Shown in pieces: positions 1 through 11,246 of a stretch of 11,246 bases of DNA. The position numbers and the translations under genes are program-made. This stretch comes from Phlegmacium glaucopus (Eukaryota; Basidiomycota; Agaricomycetes; Agaricales; Cortinariaceae): contig MU130695.1 of assembly GCA_015039465.1 (NCBI GenBank), positions 558,375 through 569,620 on the forward strand, given 5' to 3'. The notes below the pieces were generated by a model, which was given only the letters and a program-made list of their open reading frames with translations, was not told where the DNA came from and searched no databases. Each line of letters begins with the position of its first letter. Position 1 is the stretch's first letter.

Positions 1-700
1 CAGATGAATCAGCAGCAGAGGATTATTCTTGCAGAGTGTCAAGTGTTATCAAGGCTGCGCGACATGGGACCATGGGCAAGTAGTGTTTTCTCGGGAACAA
101 GGCTGCGCCTTTCAAGTGTTGACTCAGGACCTTTCACATTTTTGACATGACCACACGCCTTTGGAGTCGATATATTTTTGCTATTGGACTATGTACACTG
201 CCTTCCTTTCTTTTCTCTCGCACTTTGACACTTTACAGATTATTTTACTGTTCCTTTTCTTTTCCATTGTTCTTTTCTTCTCGCAGCTGTCCTCTCTTTA
301 TCTTTCTTCCTTTGACAGCGCGTACTTTGTTTCTTTTATTGTTTTACATAGCCTCATCCTTAGGTATAAATACTGCTCTTTTGTACCAGGATAGGTAGTT
401 CATCTCAATTCATTCTTACCCCCCACTTTCATCATCTCAGTGGAATTCCAGTGAATTCCTTCCTTCAAGTTTGCTTTTTTAACCTTTTATCTGTCACTGT
501 CCTCTACTGTCAACCGCTATAGTCTTACAGAAGACTCTCTCTTGATCATCCTCATCCTTCCTCCTCTATCTCAGTCACCTCTAAATTTGTCTTCATCCTC
601 ATCCTCCTTGTCTTCTACTCTCTCCCTTCTGTTGTGTGCTACAAGTCACAGGCTAAGCCTTCCCTAAACGAATAACAGGGAGTCCTTTGATCTAAAGACT
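1..700. other. Pyrimidine-rich, LTR-like stretch without a gene
   Basis: No convincing coding sequence is seen. From about 190 to 650 the plus strand is strongly enriched in C and T, with many TTCCTT, TCTTT and TCATCCTC runs. A TATA box lies inside it at 365-372. Short motifs recur near the left edge: AAGGCTGCGC at 51-60 and 99-108, and TCAAGTGTT near 39 and 112. A TATA box inside a long pyrimidine-rich leader is common in fungal LTRs, so this could be a decayed LTR or a lone promoter. I could not find paired TG...CA ends or a target duplication, so the identity is inference. The 77- and 83-codon open stretches here are low-complexity translations of the pyrimidine tract and are not called. 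Confidence 0.3.
365..372 (+). promoter_or_regulatory. TATA box (TATAAATA)
   Basis: A perfect TATAAATA followed by about 250 bp of pyrimidine-rich sequence, the arrangement expected of a fungal LTR or RNA polymerase II promoter reading rightwards. No recognisable gene follows within the next kilobase, so it may be a relic. Confidence 0.4.
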
Positions 701-1990
701 GGTCCAACGCTCTCTGGTTGTCTTTGTAGTCTTCATTGCTCCTCAAGCAGTCTAGGCTATAATCACTAACAACGATTTATAATGTTCCAATACAGCTGAA
801 AGGCTCATTCGATCTGTAGTGGATTCTTACTGAGCTATTTTCATCAATGAAAGGTCACTGTAGATGATAGCTCACTTCTATCTGTACATTAAATCAGTCG
901 ATGCGTTTGTTAAATAACCACTCCCTACGAAATGTTTTGTCCAGAGAATGTCTAATTATACTTTCCAAGGACAACTGACTGACGGAAAATCAGAGGGAAA
1001 ATGCTGTGATTCTTTACGGACCTGTAAATTTTTCTGATGTGCACTTTGCAGCAAAAATAGTGTGCATAAGCAGTATAGATGTTCTTTGCAATGCTTGATA
1101 ATGCTACATACATGATTCATCAAGTTTCAGCAAGTAGCCATACCATGCATCGACTTAAGATCACCCCAACTTACTGTATGATGAAGCAAAAATTGATCTT
1201 GAATAGAGCCTTGTTTGCTGGCTGGACTTGCAAAGCTTACTGCAGAACTAGGATGCCAACCACCATGCCAATTTGGTCAGCAAGCTGTTTGTTGACGTCT
1301 TTAAAGACAGAGACTGAAAAGAAGGGGGCAGAATGTAAGTGGCAAGATTACTATGCAAGCAGAATATAACAAACACTGCTTCATAATGATATTTTTATTC
1401 TTGATGAGTTTAAGGCTTGCGGAGATGTTTTCAATAAATGTATCATCCTTTTGATCGTGTTTCATTATCTCCCACAACTTAGCAGGTTGTAAATAGTCAC
1501 CTATGGAAGTTACAATTAGTGTGTCTTCCAGTGATATCAAAGTTCGACTATTATCTCACTTGGTGCGGTGATGCTGAGGTTGCTGATAGGACTGAAAACT
1601 GAATACCTATGGATTATTCATTTTTCATAATATTATTCTTCAAATTGAATCAAAAAGATCAATAACCCAACCATGAATTAATCTACAAATTGATAGTGTA
1701 AGGGTCAAAAGTGTTGACTACACTTGTTGAATAAACTGGAAATTGCAAAGCCTTGAATGTTAAATCAGCAGATAACTATGATCTAAACTGATCTATTTAT
1801 CATACTGTAAAATAACACTACAAAAAGTTCAGACTATAACCATACAAAAATCCATAAATGGTCACATGAACAACTTGCAATCTAAAGTAACTATCAAGTC
1901 TACAACTGTGAAGGAATTTGTCATACAAGTCCTAGGAAGATATCAGTAAACATCAACAAAGTTCCTGAAACAGTGAAACACTTTGTGACA
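700..1990. other. AT-rich intergenic stretch, nothing recognised
   Basis: Six-frame reading shows only short open stretches. The longest, 96 codons at 1079-1369 plus, has no recognisable motif, and its opposite strand is equally uninformative. A TGTAAGGG at 1697 resembles the start of some fungal gypsy LTRs, but no partner end or target duplication was found. I see no RNA gene or structured repeat here. Confidence 0.4.
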
Positions 1991-2862: not shown

Positions 2863-4666
2863 ATCATTGCGGTAAGCAGTGCCATCAAACAGTTCGTGTC
2901 TTTTATTATCCCTAATCTGGGAGTCAATGGCACCAGGGGGACCATCAAATTTGAGGCCGTGAGTGTTGCTCATGTAATTGGGGCGGCCGCCCTGGGATGA
3001 GACCGAAGCGGCACCAGCACGTTGGTAGTTGGCAACTCTGAACTTAGGTGCATTGCAAGGGAACTGCTGATTGTTGACCCTGAGACGGTAACATTGGATA
3101 TTGGGATATATGAAAAGATGAGCTTGGAGAAGATCTGGAGTAAGGGATCAAGTGAGACAGTGAGAAGGCCGGCTAGTGTGCCATCAGTACCACGATGTAA
3201 ATCAGGCGATGAAACCACAGATCTGCTCAATCTCATCAAAGTAGTTTTCAGGATTCTTATTCAGAACATCTCATGAAGAGGGAAGTCCGTGTGTGGCCAG
3301 ACTTTGGTAACATCAAACACGATATGTTTGTACTTCCCCATTGCATCAGTGGGCTTCATTGTTTGCTGCATCAGGGTAAGTAACATTGATAGATGCAAGG
3401 TCTACAATATGCTTACAATGGAGACAGTCCACTCAGGGAACTTGCGAGCCTCGATCATACACCAGGTCAAGGTGATGTTGGTAAGCCGCTCAAGCGCACT
3501 AATTTTATGATCTGAGACTAACTTTAATGCCAGTTTGTCTATACAGCCAAAACCATATAGGTAAACATATCTGTTGTCTCTATGCATTCAACTTCATGGG
3601 CCCAGGCTCGATGGCATTGTACAATTTCCGAGTGCCATAGTTGGGGTCTGCGCCGGCCAGCATGGTCGCTTGGGCAGCAGTGAGGGTCTGTGGATTAAAG
3701 AAATTTAGTGGGGTTCAAGTCGCCAGATGTAAGTGCATACCTTGACCTCTTTGGTTTTGACGTGGAGCTTGAAATAGACAAAGTCTGTTTGAGTGGGCTT
3801 ACCACTGACAGTCTTACAAAACTTGAAAGTAGTTCCAGAGAAGCCATGTTGTTGGTGGAAGCCATCAGGAGTTCCACAGTCAGAGAAGATCATTATGACT
3901 TGGTGAATGATCTCTGGGTTTTGGGAGAAAGAATCCTGCCAAATAGGTTAGAGATTGATATTTGATATTGGCAAAAAGAGGAATTACCCAGAGCATGTTG
4001 GGATCTTTCAAGTTAGACCGAGGGTTTCTCTTGGTACCGTGGACCAAGTCAGGGTACTTGGCAGGGTCCCTGATGAAGAAGGTAGGAGTGTTGAGAAGGA
4101 CCCAGTCCAAGATACCGTCGTCTGCTTTCAATTTGATAGTGAAACCATGGACATCCCAAGCGGTATCAGCTGAACCAGACTCACCGGCGACGGTGGAGAA
4201 ACAGACAGTGGCGTCAACCTTTTTGTTGATTTGGTGGAAAAGGGTTTGCAATGTGATATCGCTCAGGTCGCAGGTGACTTCAAAGTGACCATGAGCGCCG
4301 GCAGCCTTGGCATGGACCTACATTTTTAGATGTTACTAGTAGCGTCCAAACAAAATCTCAATAGGAATGATACTTGTGAGACGTTCGGGGATATGCTCGC
4401 AGGCAAGGTGCACGAGATTATTGATGTGATGGAAGTCTTTTCAAGTAGGTGAGTGATCTGGCAGGTGGATAAGATATAGAATTGCGTGACCTTGGAGAAG
4501 GAGGGGACCATTGGTGCTTACACACTGGGCAGCGTGGGGGAACTAGGAAGTGGTGTAGTGGTGTACCATTGGGGGTGGGACTGACAGATGAGGAGAACGG
4601 TGGTTGGATTTGCAAGGCTGACAAATGCCTGAAACAAATAACCGCCGTATTTTCCAAACTCTCCAT
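2863..4666 (-). pseudogene. Catalase pseudogene (monofunctional haem catalase), 3' truncated
   Basis: A relic of a haem catalase, which dismutates hydrogen peroxide to water and oxygen. Exons read: about 4491-4666 (NGTPLHH, then NGPLLLQ in another frame), 4374-4436 (DFHHINNL, IPERL), 3988-4317 (VHAKAAGAHGHFEV, FSTVAGESGSADTA, NTPTFFIRDPAKYPDLVH), 3741-3935 (HQVIMIFSDCGTPDGFHQQH), 3607-3687 plus 3417-3449 (ADPNYGTRKLYNAIE, then FPEWTVSI), and 2863-3365 (FDVTKVWPH, NKNPENYFDEIEQIC, NNQQFPCN, FRVANYQRAG). Five introns of 51-56 nt keep GT-AG ends. The distal-pocket His (GAHG) and the Tyr expected to ligate haem (FIYPN) remain. The distal Asn position appears to be Leu (VLLNTP), and the Arg before the ligand Tyr has become His. 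Breaks: a frameshift in exon 1, a 4-nt offset at the second donor, a 157-bp insertion after 3607, frameshifts near 3265 and 3225, and in-frame stops. The usual C-terminal tail after 2863 is missing. The family identification is certain; non-functionality is very likely. The ATG at 4664-4666 is only the first available Met. Confidence 0.93.
3450..3612. mobile_element. 157-bp insertion in the catalase exon with 6-bp direct repeat
   Basis: Catalase coding stops at NAIE (3607) and resumes at FPEWTV (3449). The boundaries carry the same six bases, CTCGAT, at 3450-3455 and 3607-3612, as a target-site duplication would. The intervening DNA is AT-rich with no recognised terminal inverted repeats, so it may be a small non-autonomous element or a filler insertion. 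It lacks GT-AG ends at the breakpoints, so it is not a normal intron. Confidence 0.5.
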
Positions 4667-4679
4667 TTCTTCTGTCGTC

Positions 4680-5190
4680 CCTTAAACCTTTCTCCTCCTT
4701 TTTAGTATTAGGAATTCAGTCTTTTACCTTTTCCCTGTTTCACTATTAATTAGGATACATCTCCGTTTTGAATGCTCTCTTCGAGAGTTATTTCTTTTGT
4801 TCAGCTAATTGTAGTTTAGCTCCTTTTCACTACTTTTCATATATGTAGTAACTTGTCATATCATCTTCCCTCAGTTGTTTGGCTTCGCAAACACTGCGGT
4901 AAGATCAATATTCTGCTTTTACATTTACCAAATATTCACCTTGTATTTCTAGCTATTTCATAAACTAATAGGTGAATGAAATGTAGTCGTTTGGCTTTGC
5001 AAACACTGAGCTATTTCGTCAACTAATAAACGGATCTGGGAAGTTATATACTGCGAGTGAAGAAAGCAAGTTCAAAATCCATCGTGTGGTAAGAGTGTAA
5101 GGCTGTCCCTCAGCGTTCAGCCCCTGACCACAAACCGCGGACTTCACATAGAAGGATGTCACTGAGCTGCACTTCGACGCTGCTGTTATA
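4680..5190. other. Intergenic stretch with short direct repeats
   Basis: No coding signal is recognised between the catalase 5' end and the G-alpha relic. It holds a short duplicated block: GTTTGGCTTCGCAAACACTG at 4877-4896 recurs with one change at 4989-5008, and AGCTATTTC...ACTAATA at 4951-4970 recurs at 5009-5028. The GTTTG/CAAAC pair within the first repeat can form a small hairpin. The open stretch 5019-5195 (minus) extends the wrong frame of the G-alpha exon and shows no recognisable domain. Confidence 0.5.
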
Positions 5191-5531
5191 CTTACATATC
5201 TATCTTTTTCTTCTAACAAAACTTGGTCGTGCAAACTCGTACTCGCTGAGGGTGGTACAGAAAATAATTGAAGCGACGGATTCCAAACAGGGGATCCATT
5301 TCCTGCCTTCACTCCTTTGACCTCCAGTGTCGAACATATGTATTCTGTAGAGAAGTTAACATCACAAAGACATGACACTAGAGGCCAAACCCAACGAAAA
5401 AAAAGAAGGTAAAATGGTTATGAGGGAATCAGATGCAGCTGGAAGCCAGTTTAAGAGAGATAAGGAATTATTCATGAGCTATGATAACTGTCCAATAGTA
5501 AATGTAGTCTCAGTGACGCTAAGTGGCCTTT

Positions 5532-5772
5532 TGTTGGAAGTGTCGAGTTCACTCACTGGGTAGATAAGCTGATAAAGAGAAAATTATGCCAGAGGTCAAA
5601 GATAAGAATACTATTTTTGTTATCATTCCTGTACTTGTATAAATACTAGTTACAATTAGAGTAGTTCTTTAGTCGAATAACTAGTGTCTTATCTGGTTAA
5701 CACCAACCGTCCTAAGCCTCCACTCTATTGTCGCTCTCGACGTTATTACCCGTTATTCGCCTAAATTCAACA
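5532..5772. mobile_element. Solo LTR, 241 bp, with 5-bp target duplication
   Basis: The element starts TGTTGGAAGTG and ends ATTCAACA, so its termini form the inverted pair TGTTG/CAACA. It is flanked by CCTTT at 5527-5531 and 5773-5777. A TATA box (TATAAATA) lies at 5638-5645. The paralogous block around 8590-8600 has no such insertion and gives the empty site, where the reading frame of the G-alpha exon is continuous. A solo LTR is left by recombination between the two LTRs of a retrotransposon. No internal coding region remains, so the superfamily (Ty3 or Ty1 type) cannot be assigned; orientation is suggested as plus by the TATA box. Confidence 0.9.
5638..5645 (+). promoter_or_regulatory. 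TATA box of the solo LTR (TATAAATA)
   Basis: A perfect TATAAATA about 107 bp inside the left end of the 241-bp solo LTR, as expected for a retrotransposon promoter. If active it would read rightwards, antisense to the G-alpha relic and gene A. Confidence 0.55.
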
Positions 5773-6053
5773 CCTTTTTCTTGCCTTGAGCACGTCCATT
5801 GCACTGGGAAAATAATCTGCAGTCCCTATCCGTAGAAGTCCCCAAAAAAACTTTAACAAAATGTCGTGTGGATTAGGAAGCAAAAGTGGAATTTTTATTC
5901 AGAGAAGAAAAGGACTTGGAGAAGGCATGCGCAATGATTGTCAAGAACCAGCTATGCAATTGAGAGATCAAGCTGGATATAATTTCATTATGATTTTGAA
6001 AACATGCATTAACATAGAGGGATCTCCACAGATTGGATAGAACTTGTCCTTGT

Positions 6054-6865
6054 TCACCCACCAACTCGGGACTTGACCCACTCTGCCATAACATCCCTCG
6101 GCACATCCTGATCGGCAGAACCATCATCTTGCTCCTCGTCGATGATGTTAGTGACGACATAGTACATGCCTTTCATAGCGCTCGAGATATGGTCCTTGAT
6201 GCGGATAGTGTGAATGGTCCTTCGGTTGTCGACGTCCCGGTAACGGAGGATATCACCGGGAGCCACAGTGTGTGCCACAGTGGCTGCGGGAGTTGGACTC
6301 ACGCCGGCCATCATGGCTCTAATTTCCTCTGGAGTACAAAGCGCCTCCATGCTATAGACCGTATACGTTAGAACGAAGCGGGACAACACTGAATTTAAAT
6401 GTACCAAAGTTGGGTTGTCTTTCGCGAGACCCTGCCATGCATGGCGAGATCGTTATGAAGCAGATTACTGTCGATAAATTGGGAACCCATAACTGCAGCA
6501 AAATACGCGAAAATCAAGCTGTGGATGTGAAATCAGGAATGCAATGAAAGAGGTGTAGACGGTACGCACCTGTTCGATGAGGCGGTAGCTCGAGTATCAC
6601 ATACATCACAAAGGGTGTCACATCTCGCGTAGAACGTGTTCACCTTCTCCAACGTATATGGCTCTGTCGGAAATTGACTTGGATATGCAATCGGGTCTTC
6701 TTGGAATCTTTGTCGAATAGAATCCCAGAGTGGTTTCGCAACTTCAAGAGCTGGGTATCGAGAGCTGATTTCGTCGGCCAACCTTTGAGCCACAATATAA
6801 TAATAGGTAATCTTCTGGGTGATGACCTCTTCGAAATTAGGTATATCGTGGTATGAAGACACCAT
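6054..6865 (-). CDS. Gene A copy 1: unrecognised protein, three exons, about 235 residues
   Basis: I do not recognise this protein. Exons are 6570-6865, 6405-6518 and 6054-6351, separated by GT-AG introns of 51 and 53 nt. Splice phases fit and give one open frame to a stop at 6054. The product starts MVSSYHDIPNFEEV and has an aromatic/helical segment (ITYYYIVAQRLADEI). It then has a cysteine cluster CDTLCDVCDT, a hydrophobic stretch (LIFAYFAAVMG) possibly too short for a membrane helix, and a C-terminal part containing GDILRYRDVDNRRTIHTIRI and an acidic IIDEEQDD. It ends in VKSRVGG. The start at 6865 is preferred over the upstream in-frame ATG at 6928 because copy 2 begins at the equivalent position. 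Exons 1-2 are conserved as open frames in copy 2 (about 86% identical in exon 1), which supports real coding. Function unknown. Confidence 0.75.
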
Positions 6866-6974
6866 TGATGATTGATCGATTATTGATCGTTGGGCTTGAC
6901 CACGTGTCGTCGTGCCCACGAAGGTCAAACGGCCTATAATTTAACACCTCTCACGTTTTGAGTTAAGAACTTCT

Positions 6975-8009: not shown

Positions 8010-8710
8010 GTCTCTCAATCCTCATATCGGTACTGTTGCAAATCGTATGTATCAGGATAAATCTATCGAAATGGCACTCAAACGATGTTAACCTACCAAG
8101 CTGTGTAATATAAGAGTAGCGAAGTAGCGAGAGATGGGCCAGCGCAAGACTGTCAAAGACATGAGCTATCACGCACAACTCTGTCGGTTAGGATGAAGTT
8201 TTTAGTAGCTGTGTTACTAGGGCTGGAGCGATTCCAACATCCTATTTTTCAGGCAAATATATGAGGAATCTTATGTACCTGTTTTCTTCTAACAAAAATT
8301 GGTCGTACAGACTCGTACTCGCTGAGGGCGGTGCAGACAATAATTGAAGTGACGGAATCAAAACAGGCGATCTATTTCCTGCCTTCACTCCTTTGACCTC
8401 CAGCGTCAAAAATATTCTGTAGAGAAGTTTAACATCACAGAAAGTTATGACACTAGAGGCCAAACCCAACGACGAAGAAAAAAGGTAAAATGGTTAGACG
8501 CAGTTGGAAGCCAATTGACGAGATATAAAGAATTATTCATGAATTATGATAACTGTCCGATAGTGAACGCAGTCTCAGTGATACCAAATGACTTTTTTCT
8601 TGCCTTGAGCACGCCCATTACGCTGGGAAAATAATCTGGAGTTCCTATCCGTAGAACCCCCCAAAAAAAACGTTAACAAGATGTCAAAGACGTTTGAATT
8701 CAACGCAGGA
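8010..8710 (-). pseudogene. G-protein alpha subunit pseudogene, copy 2 (no LTR)
   Basis: Paralogue of the relic at 5196-5850. Minus-strand coding from about 8651 to 8547 gives RIGTPDYFPSVMGVLKARKK, then SFGITETAFTIGQLS with no interruption. Exon 8279-8416 gives [13 protein letters not shown] followed by a TAG where the conserved Trp should be, then IACFDSVTSIIVCTALSEYE. The same 10-nt insertion as in copy 1 shifts the frame to YDQFLLEENR. A 37-nt GT-AG intron (8242-8278) joins this in frame to MLESLQ, exactly as in G-alpha proteins. Beyond 8220 the sequence decays; HTICNSTDMRI near 8010-8060 may be a remnant of the TCATD-type G5 box (weak). Poor VEFK similarity extends the 5' side to about 8706. 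The P-loop exon is absent. Confidence 0.85.
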
Positions 8711-8942
8711 CATTGACGTAAAATGTCGCGTGGATTGGGAAACAAAAGTGGAATTTTCATAGAGAAAAAAAGGACTTAGAGAATGATCGTCAAGAACCAG
8801 TTATGCAATTAAAACTTTCCTCAGTGTCGCGGCTCACTCACATATTGGAGATATAAAGCTGGATAGAATTTCATTATGATTTTAGTGACCATAGGTCACA
8901 CCAAGGTTTGCTGATGTAGAACGAAGCGGCACAACAATGAAT

Positions 8943-9410
8943 TTAAATGTACCAAAGTTTGGTTGTCTTTCGCGAGACCCTGCCATGCATGGCTTGATCG
9001 TTTTGAAGTAAGATATTGTCGATAAATTGGGAACCCATAACTGCTGAAAAATACGCGATAATCAAGCTGTGGATGTGAAATCAGGAATGCAATGAAAGAG
9101 GTGTAGACGGTACGCACATGTTCGATGAGGCGGTAGCTCGAGTATCACATACATCACAAAGGGAGTTACATCTCGCGTAGAACGTGTTCACCTTTTCCAC
9201 AGTAAACGGCTCTGTCGGAAATTGACATGGATATTCAATGGGGTCTGCTTGGAATCTTTGTTGAGTAGAATCCCAGAGTGGTTGCACGAGTTCAAGAACT
9301 GGGTATCGAGAGCTGATTTCGTCGGCCAACCTTTGAGCCACAATATAATAATAGGTAATCTTCTGGGTGATGACCTCTTCAAAGTTAGGTATATCGTGGT
9401 ATGAAGACAT
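8943..9410 (-). pseudogene. Gene A copy 2, lacking exon 3
   Basis: Exon 1 (9118-9410) starts MSSYHDIPNFEEV and exon 2 (8953-9066) ends in VSRKTTKL; the intron 9067-9117 is 51 nt, as in copy 1. Both exons are free of stops and frameshifts. They differ from copy 1 at about 13 of 96 residues in exon 1, including the cysteine region (CNSLCDVCDT). The second donor GTACAT is still present, but the sequence diverges 35 nt later and exon 3 is gone. Unspliced read-through would end at a TAA at 8943-8945 after about 138 residues. It is called a pseudogene because 40% of the protein is missing; a truncated product remains possible since the exons are clean. Confidence 0.75.
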
Positions 9411-9514
9411 GATGGTGGAGGAAAAGTGAAAGATTGATCGTTGGGTTTGACATCGTCTTTCTCACGAAGGTTACTAAACAGCTAATTTACATATCAACTC
9501 TCACGTTTTGAGTC

Positions 9515-9923
9515 CAACTTTGTGTATTCTGTTGATTCAAGTTATGCACCAATTGTTATATGTCACTTTATTTCTAGTAAGAGAATGATGTGGACGCCCT
9601 TAGACTACGCCCTCAAGAAAGTATTTTTAGAGAACAAACGGTTTATCCACTGGATGGTAACGGATAAAACTATTCAGAAACCCCCTTTCTGCGAGAAATC
9701 ATAATGCTTAGATAGAAACCCCCTTTCTGATAGGACAAACAACGTCGGCATATTAAAATGCCGAGTATAACTCCGAAAGACATGAGCACCCGAATGTGAT
9801 CACATGATGCATTCTGTTTATCAAAGGACCGTTATGCGACTTTGAGGATGCGCAACTCTCCTTCCACTAGACAGGACAGGGGATTTCAGGTGCGTATGGC
9901 ATATTCTATGTCTTAATCACTTT
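9515..9923. other. Transposon-like debris with short repeats, no gene
   Basis: No recognised coding sequence. AGAAACCCCCTTTCTG occurs twice, at 9676-9691 and 9714-9729, and CGGCAT-ATTAAA-ATGCCG near 9747-9764 is a perfect 6-bp stem with a 6-nt loop. Such motifs are common near ends of fungal DNA transposons, but no paired terminal repeats were found. The 60-codon open frame at 9522-9704 has no recognisable features. Confidence 0.4.
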
Positions 9924-10019
9924 CTAAAGGTTCTTTAGGATTGGGCAAGACCTTCTCGTATGGCCAGTCTTGCCACAGAGCCCACATTTTTGTGTTTGGG
10001 AATTTTTAAGTAAGCAATA
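9924..10019 (-). pseudogene. C-terminal zinc-knuckle fragment of a transposon-type protein
   Basis: The minus strand reads 31 codons to a TAG at 9924-9926 and contains QKCGLCGKTGHTRRSCP, a canonical CCHC zinc knuckle (C-x2-C-x4-H-x4-C). In fungal genomes this motif often ends proteins of DNA transposons and related repeats, where it binds nucleic acid. Only the C-terminus is present: upstream sequence would lie beyond 10020, where the window switches to the abnormal orientation. It reads normally on the minus strand, which fixes the left limit of that abnormal segment. Confidence 0.6.
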
Positions 10020-10035
10020 AGACTTGTTGTTCATC

Positions 10036-11026
10036 CTCGGGGCAAAACGGGTTCGGAGAAAAAGAAGTCTCTGACTCGGGTGACAGACCTTCCGTTAAGG
10101 TTAATAACTCAACGAAGTTCTGGCAACCCTCTGTTACAACTTACATCCATTCAAATGGGGTCACGTACTACGGTAGCTTTTCCCAGACCTCTTCAATACC
10201 TTTACCATATACTCCTAACTACTTTCACTATGGATAAAATAAACGAACCCATACGTAGTAAGTTTTGTGATATTTCGATAAGTAATAATTAATTAGATGG
10301 AAGATCGGAATGTGGGTAGATAGTTCGAGCTCATAACATTCTACTTTACCCTACTTCTAAAGAAGTTCCGACCCAGGTTCCGAGAACTTGTTTGCCATCT
10401 AAAAAAGTAACTGTATTTATAAGAGTCTGATTATAGAAATACAAATCAAACTAAGAATGATGTTCGGAGGTTTTTTAAGTTTCCGAAACTTCGTACGAAG
10501 ACGTTCAAGTAGACTTCCATTCGATATAGAATACTATAGTTGTCCGACTAGAGTTAAAACCGTTTCGTCGAAGATTAGGAAAATTACCTATGTCACGTTT
10601 GACCTAGGACAGTAGGAACTTCTTTAGGAGGAGTACCTGACTTCAGTTGGTTCTAGGAGCATTTCTGGATGCACTAATGGAGTCATCAGGAGAACTTCTA
10701 TGTTGTTTAGGTCAGTTCACCACCCCCCATACATAAATAAGTTAATAAGGACTAAAAGAGAAATTAAGTTTAAGATCATGGTAAGTGTTGTTATGGGTTG
10801 TGACAGAACGTAACGGGCACTGATAGACCGGTATGTTCCAAGTAGTCAACGGAGTCTTTCTCGTAAGAGATCAAGTCCGGTATGGCTGTGAGATGTTGCG
10901 TTGAGGTACCTAGGTCGTCGGAAACCAATACAAGTTTAGGAATTTTTACGTATGTTCTGATTGAAAAACTTACGATACCTACTTCGACTACGGGTACTCC
11001 GGAAACTTCATTAATTATAGTTTATT
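10036..11026. CDS. hAT transposase C-terminal 259 residues, five exons, only in the complement-not-reversed reading
   Basis: After base-wise complement, left to right: exons 10036-10249, 10307-10395, 10448-10517, 10570-10727 and 10778-11026. They are separated by GT-AG introns of 57, 52, 52 and 50 nt. Exon lengths give a single open frame of 260 codons ending in TAA (11024-11026). Landmarks in order: TVWKAIPIIELLQDRWE, PVHDAIEKGLEKLWKWY, YFICLALHPSIKLEYCKMKW, YYKPP, then DLRDYL. Last come WWG followed by YPTLSCIARDYLA and GSSVASERAFSSSG, the hAT C-terminal dimerisation region with its W, P and SER-F residues. The N-terminal BED finger and first catalytic Asp region are missing; a 3' splice site (AAGTAG at 10030-10035) precedes the first exon. 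The coding quality suggests a young copy. It cannot be expressed as written; the open frames of the plus strand here (10080-10292, 10882-11073) are chance. Confidence 0.9.
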
Positions 11027-11079
11027 TATATGAATCAGATGACAAAATGTTATTTATAGGTCAAAAACACTAAAAAATA

Positions 11080-11234
11080 CGTCAAGTAGTCAAGCTTGAC
11101 CAAGATCTTGACTTGACTTGACAATCTTGGCCAAGATTTGTCAAGTCAAGTCAAGTCCAAGTCAAGTCGGTTCTCCCACAGTCAAGTCAAGAGTCAAGTC
11201 CGGTTCCCCCACTACTTGACTTGACTTGACTTGA
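11080..11234. repeat. hAT subterminal repeats: GTCAA/TTGAC pentamers with hairpin
   Basis: As written, the last 165 bases are dense in GTCAA and TTGAC pentamers in runs such as TTGACTTGACTTGAC. Complemented, they read CAGTT/AACTG. The stretch 11108-11154 is a near-perfect inverted repeat with 23-nt arms centred on GGCC and one bulged base; GTCAAGCTTGAC at 11089-11100 is a perfect palindrome. Dense short subterminal repeats are typical binding sites for hAT transposases. Confidence 0.75.
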
Positions 11235-11246
11235 AACCATCGGGAT

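What the first reader, a model, noticed from the sequence alone, without database searches (positions are those of the whole stretch)
10021..11246. A 1.2-kb hAT transposase segment is stored complemented but not reversed
Complementing each base without reversing turns an apparently empty 1.2 kb into a spliced hAT transposase C-terminus. It has 260 codons with no stop before the end, four GT-AG introns of 50-57 nt with matching phases, and landmark motifs such as IARDYLA and GSSVASERAFSS in the right order. Chance cannot explain this. A genomic inversion both reverses and complements, so it would leave the gene readable on one strand; this segment is readable on neither. The segment must have been produced by a sequence-handling or assembly fault, or placed deliberately.
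Basis: partly seen in the sequence, partly recalled or inferred. Interest (0 to 1): 0.97.

Follow-up and report, generated by a model that had tools for sequence, protein, structure and literature searches.

The report
Transposon piece written backwards beside gap
A 1.2-kb stretch beside a gap in a mushroom genome assembly is part of an ordinary transposon with its letters in reverse order, likely put there by faulty gap-filling software, and the same fault recurs elsewhere in the assembly.

Summary
The odd observation is real. Bases 10002-11246 read as a spliced hAT transposase C-terminus only when complemented without reversal (Pfam Dimer_Tnp_hAT E = 1.9e-16; 0 of 150 shuffles reach the splicing score). 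It is an assembly fault, not biology. The block ends at a 5,045-N run. Reading it backwards in place gives one ungapped 1,415-bp alignment at 99.4% to contig C248, straight across 10001|10002; as written, that alignment stops at 10001. True-order copies of the whole segment lie on two more contigs (98% and 97%). The fault recurs: un-reversing blocks on C53, C109, C9 and C230 beside N runs, and one on C130 with no N left, also restores single alignments (6 of 6 loci with the window's). Candidate counts for three repeats suggest that a few percent of copies are stored reversed. NCBI proteins of Phlegmacium glaucopus contain window exons exactly. A paper that covers this species (as Cortinarius glaucopus) patched its hybrid assemblies with PBJelly. 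A gap filler that reversed but did not complement its inserts is the likely cause; the tool is not proven.

The parts
9662..10001 (+). Flank in normal order; the last correctly ordered bases before the fault
   Evidence: 9663-10001 identical over 339 bases to L017 8493-8831 (C248); 9662-10001 98.8% to L018 5907-6246 (C188), which continues differently after this point
10002..11246 (.). Block written in reverse order without complementing; in true order it is one end and the C-terminal coding part of a hAT transposon
   Evidence: The reversed string matches C143 (98%), C198 (97%) and, over 1,076 bp, C248 (99%); flank plus un-reversed block aligns to L017 over 1,415 bp without a gap at 99.4%; 5-mer score 164.8
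10036..11026 (.). Spliced hAT transposase C-terminus including the stop codon, readable only on the complement of the written letters
   Evidence: Splicing search, frames printed, Pfam Dimer_Tnp_hAT E 1.9e-16
11237..11246 (.). Outer end of the element (TAGGGCTACC when read backwards), which in true order follows base 10001
   Evidence: The same ten letters begin the copies at L017 8832 and 8050, L022 543 and L023 424
11246..11246 (.). Last base before a 5,045-base N run on G000:C237
   Evidence: N runs in L001 and L009

Best explanation
Window bases 10002-11246 are the end of an ordinary hAT transposon with the letters in reversed order, likely because gap-filling software reversed its inserted sequence without complementing it. 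Shown: the reversal, its base-exact junction, the adjoining N run, normal-order copies elsewhere, and the same fault at other places of the same assembly, mostly beside N runs. Inferred: the draft contig ended at the transposon boundary (10001), a gap filler extended it about 1.2 kb into the repeat, and its code for one strand state reversed the string but skipped complementing. Less certain: that the tool was PBJelly, which the source paper names for its hybrid assemblies (my estimate about 0.4).
For: (1) Un-reversing the block turns a match that stops at 10001 into one ungapped 1,415-bp alignment at 99.4% to C248. (2) The same operation gives single alignments at C53 (1,802 bp at 95.7%, against 721 bp as written) and C109 (3,986 bp at 90.4%, against 862 bp), with junctions at exactly the next base of the element, and in a relative about 65-70% alike at C9 (1,971 against 505 bp) and C230 (2,577 against 622 bp), there with the inner border chosen by scanning 14 and 15 settings. 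(3) These five blocks lie against or beside N runs. (4) A sixth, on C130 (L019 about 4018-4851), has no N and matches normal copy L020 over 691 bp at 96.8% when un-reversed, against 109 bp as written, as a closed gap would. (5) In 11 stretches whose positions were not chosen by hits, 2 of 6 visible gap edges score as reversed; one of the two, in L028, is confirmed by homology. (6) First-look candidates, written order against true order: 15 and 297, 58 and 846, 44 and 655. (7) NCBI proteins named Phlegmacium glaucopus share identical runs of 98, 111 and 97 residues with window frames. PMC7550596 (passages) states ALLPATHS-LG then PBJelly patching for hybrid assemblies and names Cortinarius glaucopus. 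PBJelly closes gaps or extends contig ends into them (PMC3504050, passages).
Against: No raw reads could be examined. The block has no indels against its relatives (1,415 and 1,246 bp ungapped), whereas a benchmark reports mean fill identities of 88.6-95.2% for PBJelly with simulated reads in three species (PMC8848313, passages); so the fill came from accurate sequence, which weakens PBJelly on uncorrected reads. Which genomes were hybrid is in a supplement that I could not read. 4 of 6 sampled gap edges, and the other edge at C237, C109 and C230, score as normal order, so the fault is not universal. No paper describing such a bug was found. The matching NCBI proteins are listed with a contig of 868,108 bp, C237 has 864,199 bp, so the records are not shown to be identical. 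The tool also prints withheld stretches as N, so N runs as assembly gaps is an inference from their varied lengths.
Confidence: 0.84

Rival explanations
1. The fault arose in a different step, for example scaffolding, a merge of contigs from a second assembly or a format conversion, that reversed inserted pieces without complementing them.
For: The block letters are accurate, with no indels against relatives, as expected of assembled contigs rather than raw long reads.
Against: The blocks sit at gap edges and in one place that looks like a closed gap, which is what a gap filler touches, and they continue the flanking element when un-reversed.
Confidence: 0.14
2. The segment was altered deliberately in this window alone, as a planted control.
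Against: The same fault is present at five other loci of the assembly and with other repeats.
Confidence: 0.01
3. A real rearrangement produced a reversal of the letters without complementing.
For: Reversed copies match the window's block at 97, 94, 87 and 70%, which at first sight looks like an inherited family.
Against: Strands are antiparallel, so a physical inversion also complements; no known polymerase or recombinase does otherwise (established knowledge). True-order copies show the same range of divergence (97-99, 92 and 65-70%). Five of the six blocks examined lie against or beside N runs.
Confidence: 0.005

Closest known systems
Gap-filling errors of long-read gap closers such as PBJelly
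   Same: Sequence added at gap edges and in closed gaps, repeat-rich content, remaining N runs of varied size
   Different: The faults I saw described are overfilled gaps and low fill identity; reversal without complementing was not described in the listings and passages seen
hAT superfamily DNA transposons (Pfam PF05699)
   Same: C-terminal dimerisation domain, and a shared outer end TAGGGCTACC at several insertions
   Different: Nothing unusual was seen once the block is read in true order

Membership tests
hAT transposon | C-terminal Dimer_Tnp_hAT domain | tested here: met
   E 1.9e-16, 60 bits, cut-off 21.4, on the complement-only reading
hAT transposon | Defined terminus shared between insertions with different flanks | tested here: met
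   TAGGGCTACC at L017 8832 and 8050, L022 543, L023 424
hAT transposon | 8-bp target site duplication | not tested
   The other element end is not in the window; other copies were not examined for it
hAT transposon | Complete catalytic RNase H-like domain | not tested
   Only the last part of the gene lies in the block
Gap-filling artefact | Block abuts or replaces an assembly gap | tested here: met
   Against or beside N runs at 5 of 6 loci (C237, C53, C109, C9, C230); the sixth, C130 L019, has no N and would be a closed gap
Gap-filling artefact | Undoing one operation restores colinearity with normal copies | tested here: met
   6 of 6 loci tested: C237, C53, C109 with fixed borders, C9, C230 and C130 with borders scanned over 14, 15 and 4 settings
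Gap-filling artefact | Recurs at gaps not chosen by the probe | tested here: met
   2 of 6 visible edges in 11 stretches by 5-mer score, 1 of these 2 confirmed by homology; the contigs sampled were known from earlier hits, the positions were not
PBJelly product specifically | This genome was a hybrid assembly patched with PBJelly | tested here: inconclusive
   The paper states the method for hybrids and names the species; the list of hybrids was not readable
Gap-filling artefact | Raw reads contradict the written order | not testable with these tools
   No reads on hand

The most novel reading that the evidence does not exclude
A so far undescribed strand-handling bug in a widely used gap filler has put reversed, uncomplemented sequence into many public hybrid genome assemblies. 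It would hide real genes and repeats from ordinary homology searches and leave stretches that look like unique, orphan DNA, sometimes with no N to mark them.
Probability: 0.35. Interest if true: 0.6.

Novelty: not a real feature. Interest (0 to 1): 0.3.

Why it matters
It has no biological meaning, but it is a recurrent and nearly invisible error in a genome assembly. A reversed block finds its true relatives in no six-frame or nucleotide search (it finds only other reversed blocks), so it can mimic novel or orphan sequence and removes real copies of repeats and genes from analysis. A simple test, searching plain-reversed sequence next to gaps with a k-mer orientation score as a first screen, finds such blocks and could be run on any gap-filled assembly.

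Tried and rejected
Complement-only against reversed-in-place: both describe the same letters on opposite strands, but the reversed string is what continues the flank. Single-event fault: rejected, as five other loci show it. The 5-mer score alone as a detector: not specific. Stretches without N at L013 4736-5397, L029 1852-2567 and 6809-7378, L030 743-1474 and L028 5787-6686 scored 43-68, but belong to repeats found in the written order at several other loci; L031 2024-2310 and L032 9695-9978 (71 and 69) look like simple repeats by eye. L016 3271-3750 (43, no N) is unresolved: it partly matches the right gap edge of L015 in both orders. L022 1-432 (39) and L033 8712-9016 (34.5) were not resolved either. 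Phantom annotated proteins: the longest forward open frame of the L013 part of the C109 block gave no hit at E <= 0.001 among 63 candidates; only this one frame was tried. Literature: searches for reversed-not-complemented wording listed 4 papers, none on assembly by title and abstract; one search listed 5 papers, none with the phrase; others (20 of 42 listed; 12 of 34 listed) listed none that names this fault in title or shown abstract. In the passages shown, PMC6733440, PMC4580222 and PMC8848313 (12 of 25 places shown) mention no such fault.

Full report
Observation. The window is G000:C237:558375-569620, in a 60.5-Mb genome of 259 contigs. As written, 10002-11246 has no useful reading: the best spliced frame is 169 aa on the written strand and 76 aa on its reverse complement. 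Complemented without reversal it gives 288 aa; the plain reverse gives 81 aa, because the gene lies on the other strand of the true sequence. None of 150 dinucleotide shuffles reaches the complement score (818 against a maximum of 585). The 254-aa product up to the fourth intron's last exon matches Dimer_Tnp_hAT at E = 1.9e-16; the products of the written strand and of its reverse complement match no family at E <= 1, and the plain-reverse product has one sub-threshold hit. A 5-mer orientation score flags 10044-11233 at 164.8; the five other flagged stretches of the window score 15.1-37.9.

Where the block begins and ends. Base 10001 is the last base shared with C248 and C188. In C248 the next letters are TAGGGCTACC, which are the window's last ten letters read backwards. 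After 11246 comes a run of 5,045 N. I take N runs of such varied length (486, at least 645, 984, 1,345, 2,121, 2,558, 5,045) as assembly gaps. The tool also prints withheld stretches as N, and for the two longest runs (at least 9,728 and at least 8,184) I cannot tell.

True order. Searched backwards, the block matches full-length at C143 (98%) and C198 (97%), and over 1,076 bp at the end of C248 (99%). With the block un-reversed, the window aligns to C248 over 1,415 bp with 8 mismatches and no gap, straight across 10001|10002; as written, the alignment stops at 10001. So the operation is reversal in place without complementing.

Other loci. The written letters also match C53 (97%), C109 (94%), C130 (87%), C9 and C230 (70%) in the same order, which at first looks like an inherited family; seven further matches of 73-80% to the outer end were not examined. 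On C53 the block runs from L011 8721 to L012 172, where N begins. On C109 it runs from the right edge of a 984-N run at L013 7832 to L014 2247, and normal sequence resumes at L014 2248 with exactly the next base of the element. Un-reversing gives single alignments of 1,802 bp (95.7%) and 3,986 bp (90.4%) to normal copies, against 721 and 862 bp as written. On C9 and C230 un-reversing the stretch up to the N run extends the alignment to a relative from 505 to 1,971 bp and from 622 to 2,577 bp, with the inner border chosen by scanning 14 and 15 settings. On C130 a reversed copy of a short related element lies in sequence with no N (L019 about 4018-4851); backwards, 588 bp of it match L020 and L021 at 97%, and un-reversing it in place gives 691 bp at 96.8% against 109 bp as written. 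That is what a fully closed gap would look like. In all, un-reversing works at 6 of 6 loci tried, the window included.

How common. I fetched 11 stretches of 9,990 bases. Their contigs were known from earlier hits; their positions were not chosen by hits. Four hold an N run (L024, L026, L028, L030), with six visible edges. By 5-mer score the right edges in L026 and L028 are reversed; L024 right, L026 left and both edges in L030 are not flagged. L028 is confirmed by homology; for L026 only a 44-bp match in reverse order turned up. At the loci found by the probe, the other gap edge is normal at C237, C109 and C230, scores as reversed at C9, and was not visible at C53. First-look candidates, written order against true order, are 15 and 297 for the hAT, 58 and 846 for the L028 block, and 44 and 655 for a further repeat. 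These are counts before scoring; they include the query itself and, hits to the normal flank and to simple repeats, and the two queries of a pair are not identical. They support a few percent of copies reversed, no finer figure.

Organism and pipeline. A window frame hits four NCBI proteins named Phlegmacium glaucopus, each listed with a contig of 868,108 bp. P0001 shares identical runs of 98 and 111 residues with window frames and P0004 one of 97. The taxonomy holds strain AT 2004 276; that this is Cortinarius glaucopus is recalled. PMC7550596 (passages read) names Cortinarius glaucopus and says that hybrid assemblies were made with ALLPATHS-LG and patched with PBJelly; whether this genome was one of them was not readable. 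PMC3504050 (passages) says that PBJelly closes gaps, or extends the flanks into them and shrinks them, which is the geometry seen here. Against it, the block shows no indels, while PMC8848313 (passages) reports mean fill identities of 88.6-95.2% for PBJelly with simulated reads in three species. So the fill was accurate sequence, and the tool remains open.

Conclusion. It is one case of a recurrent reversal fault, mostly seen beside gaps, in one mushroom assembly.

Noticed in passing
window 6054-6940 and 9081-9461: Related copies of a small two-exon gene family of unknown function; further copies at C237:519821-526498 and on C133. NCBI names relatives hypothetical proteins of Phlegmacium glaucopus.
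   Followed up: partly
window about 3880-4317, minus strand: Catalase-like exon: a 121-aa piece matches Pfam Catalase at E 1.1e-41. Whether the gene is intact was not checked.
   Followed up: partly
window 540-800: Part of an abundant repeat, 655 first-look candidates in the genome; a related stretch is stored in the opposite letter order at dozens of places, among them C53:13975-14193, where L011 has no N.
   Followed up: partly
window about 5528-5770: By eye, a stretch present in one of two duplicated segments (about 5221-5900 and 8281-8780) and absent from the other; its ends look like a solo LTR.
   Followed up: no
L017 (C248) 8050-8492 and 8832-9907: Two copies of the hAT end about 340 bp apart, the second running to the contig end; the same flank without the insertion is on C188 (L018).
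   Followed up: no
L013 4736-5397, L029 1852-2567, L030 743-1474: Repeat family whose composition mimics reversed sequence in a k-mer score although it occurs in the written order at several loci.
   Followed up: partly
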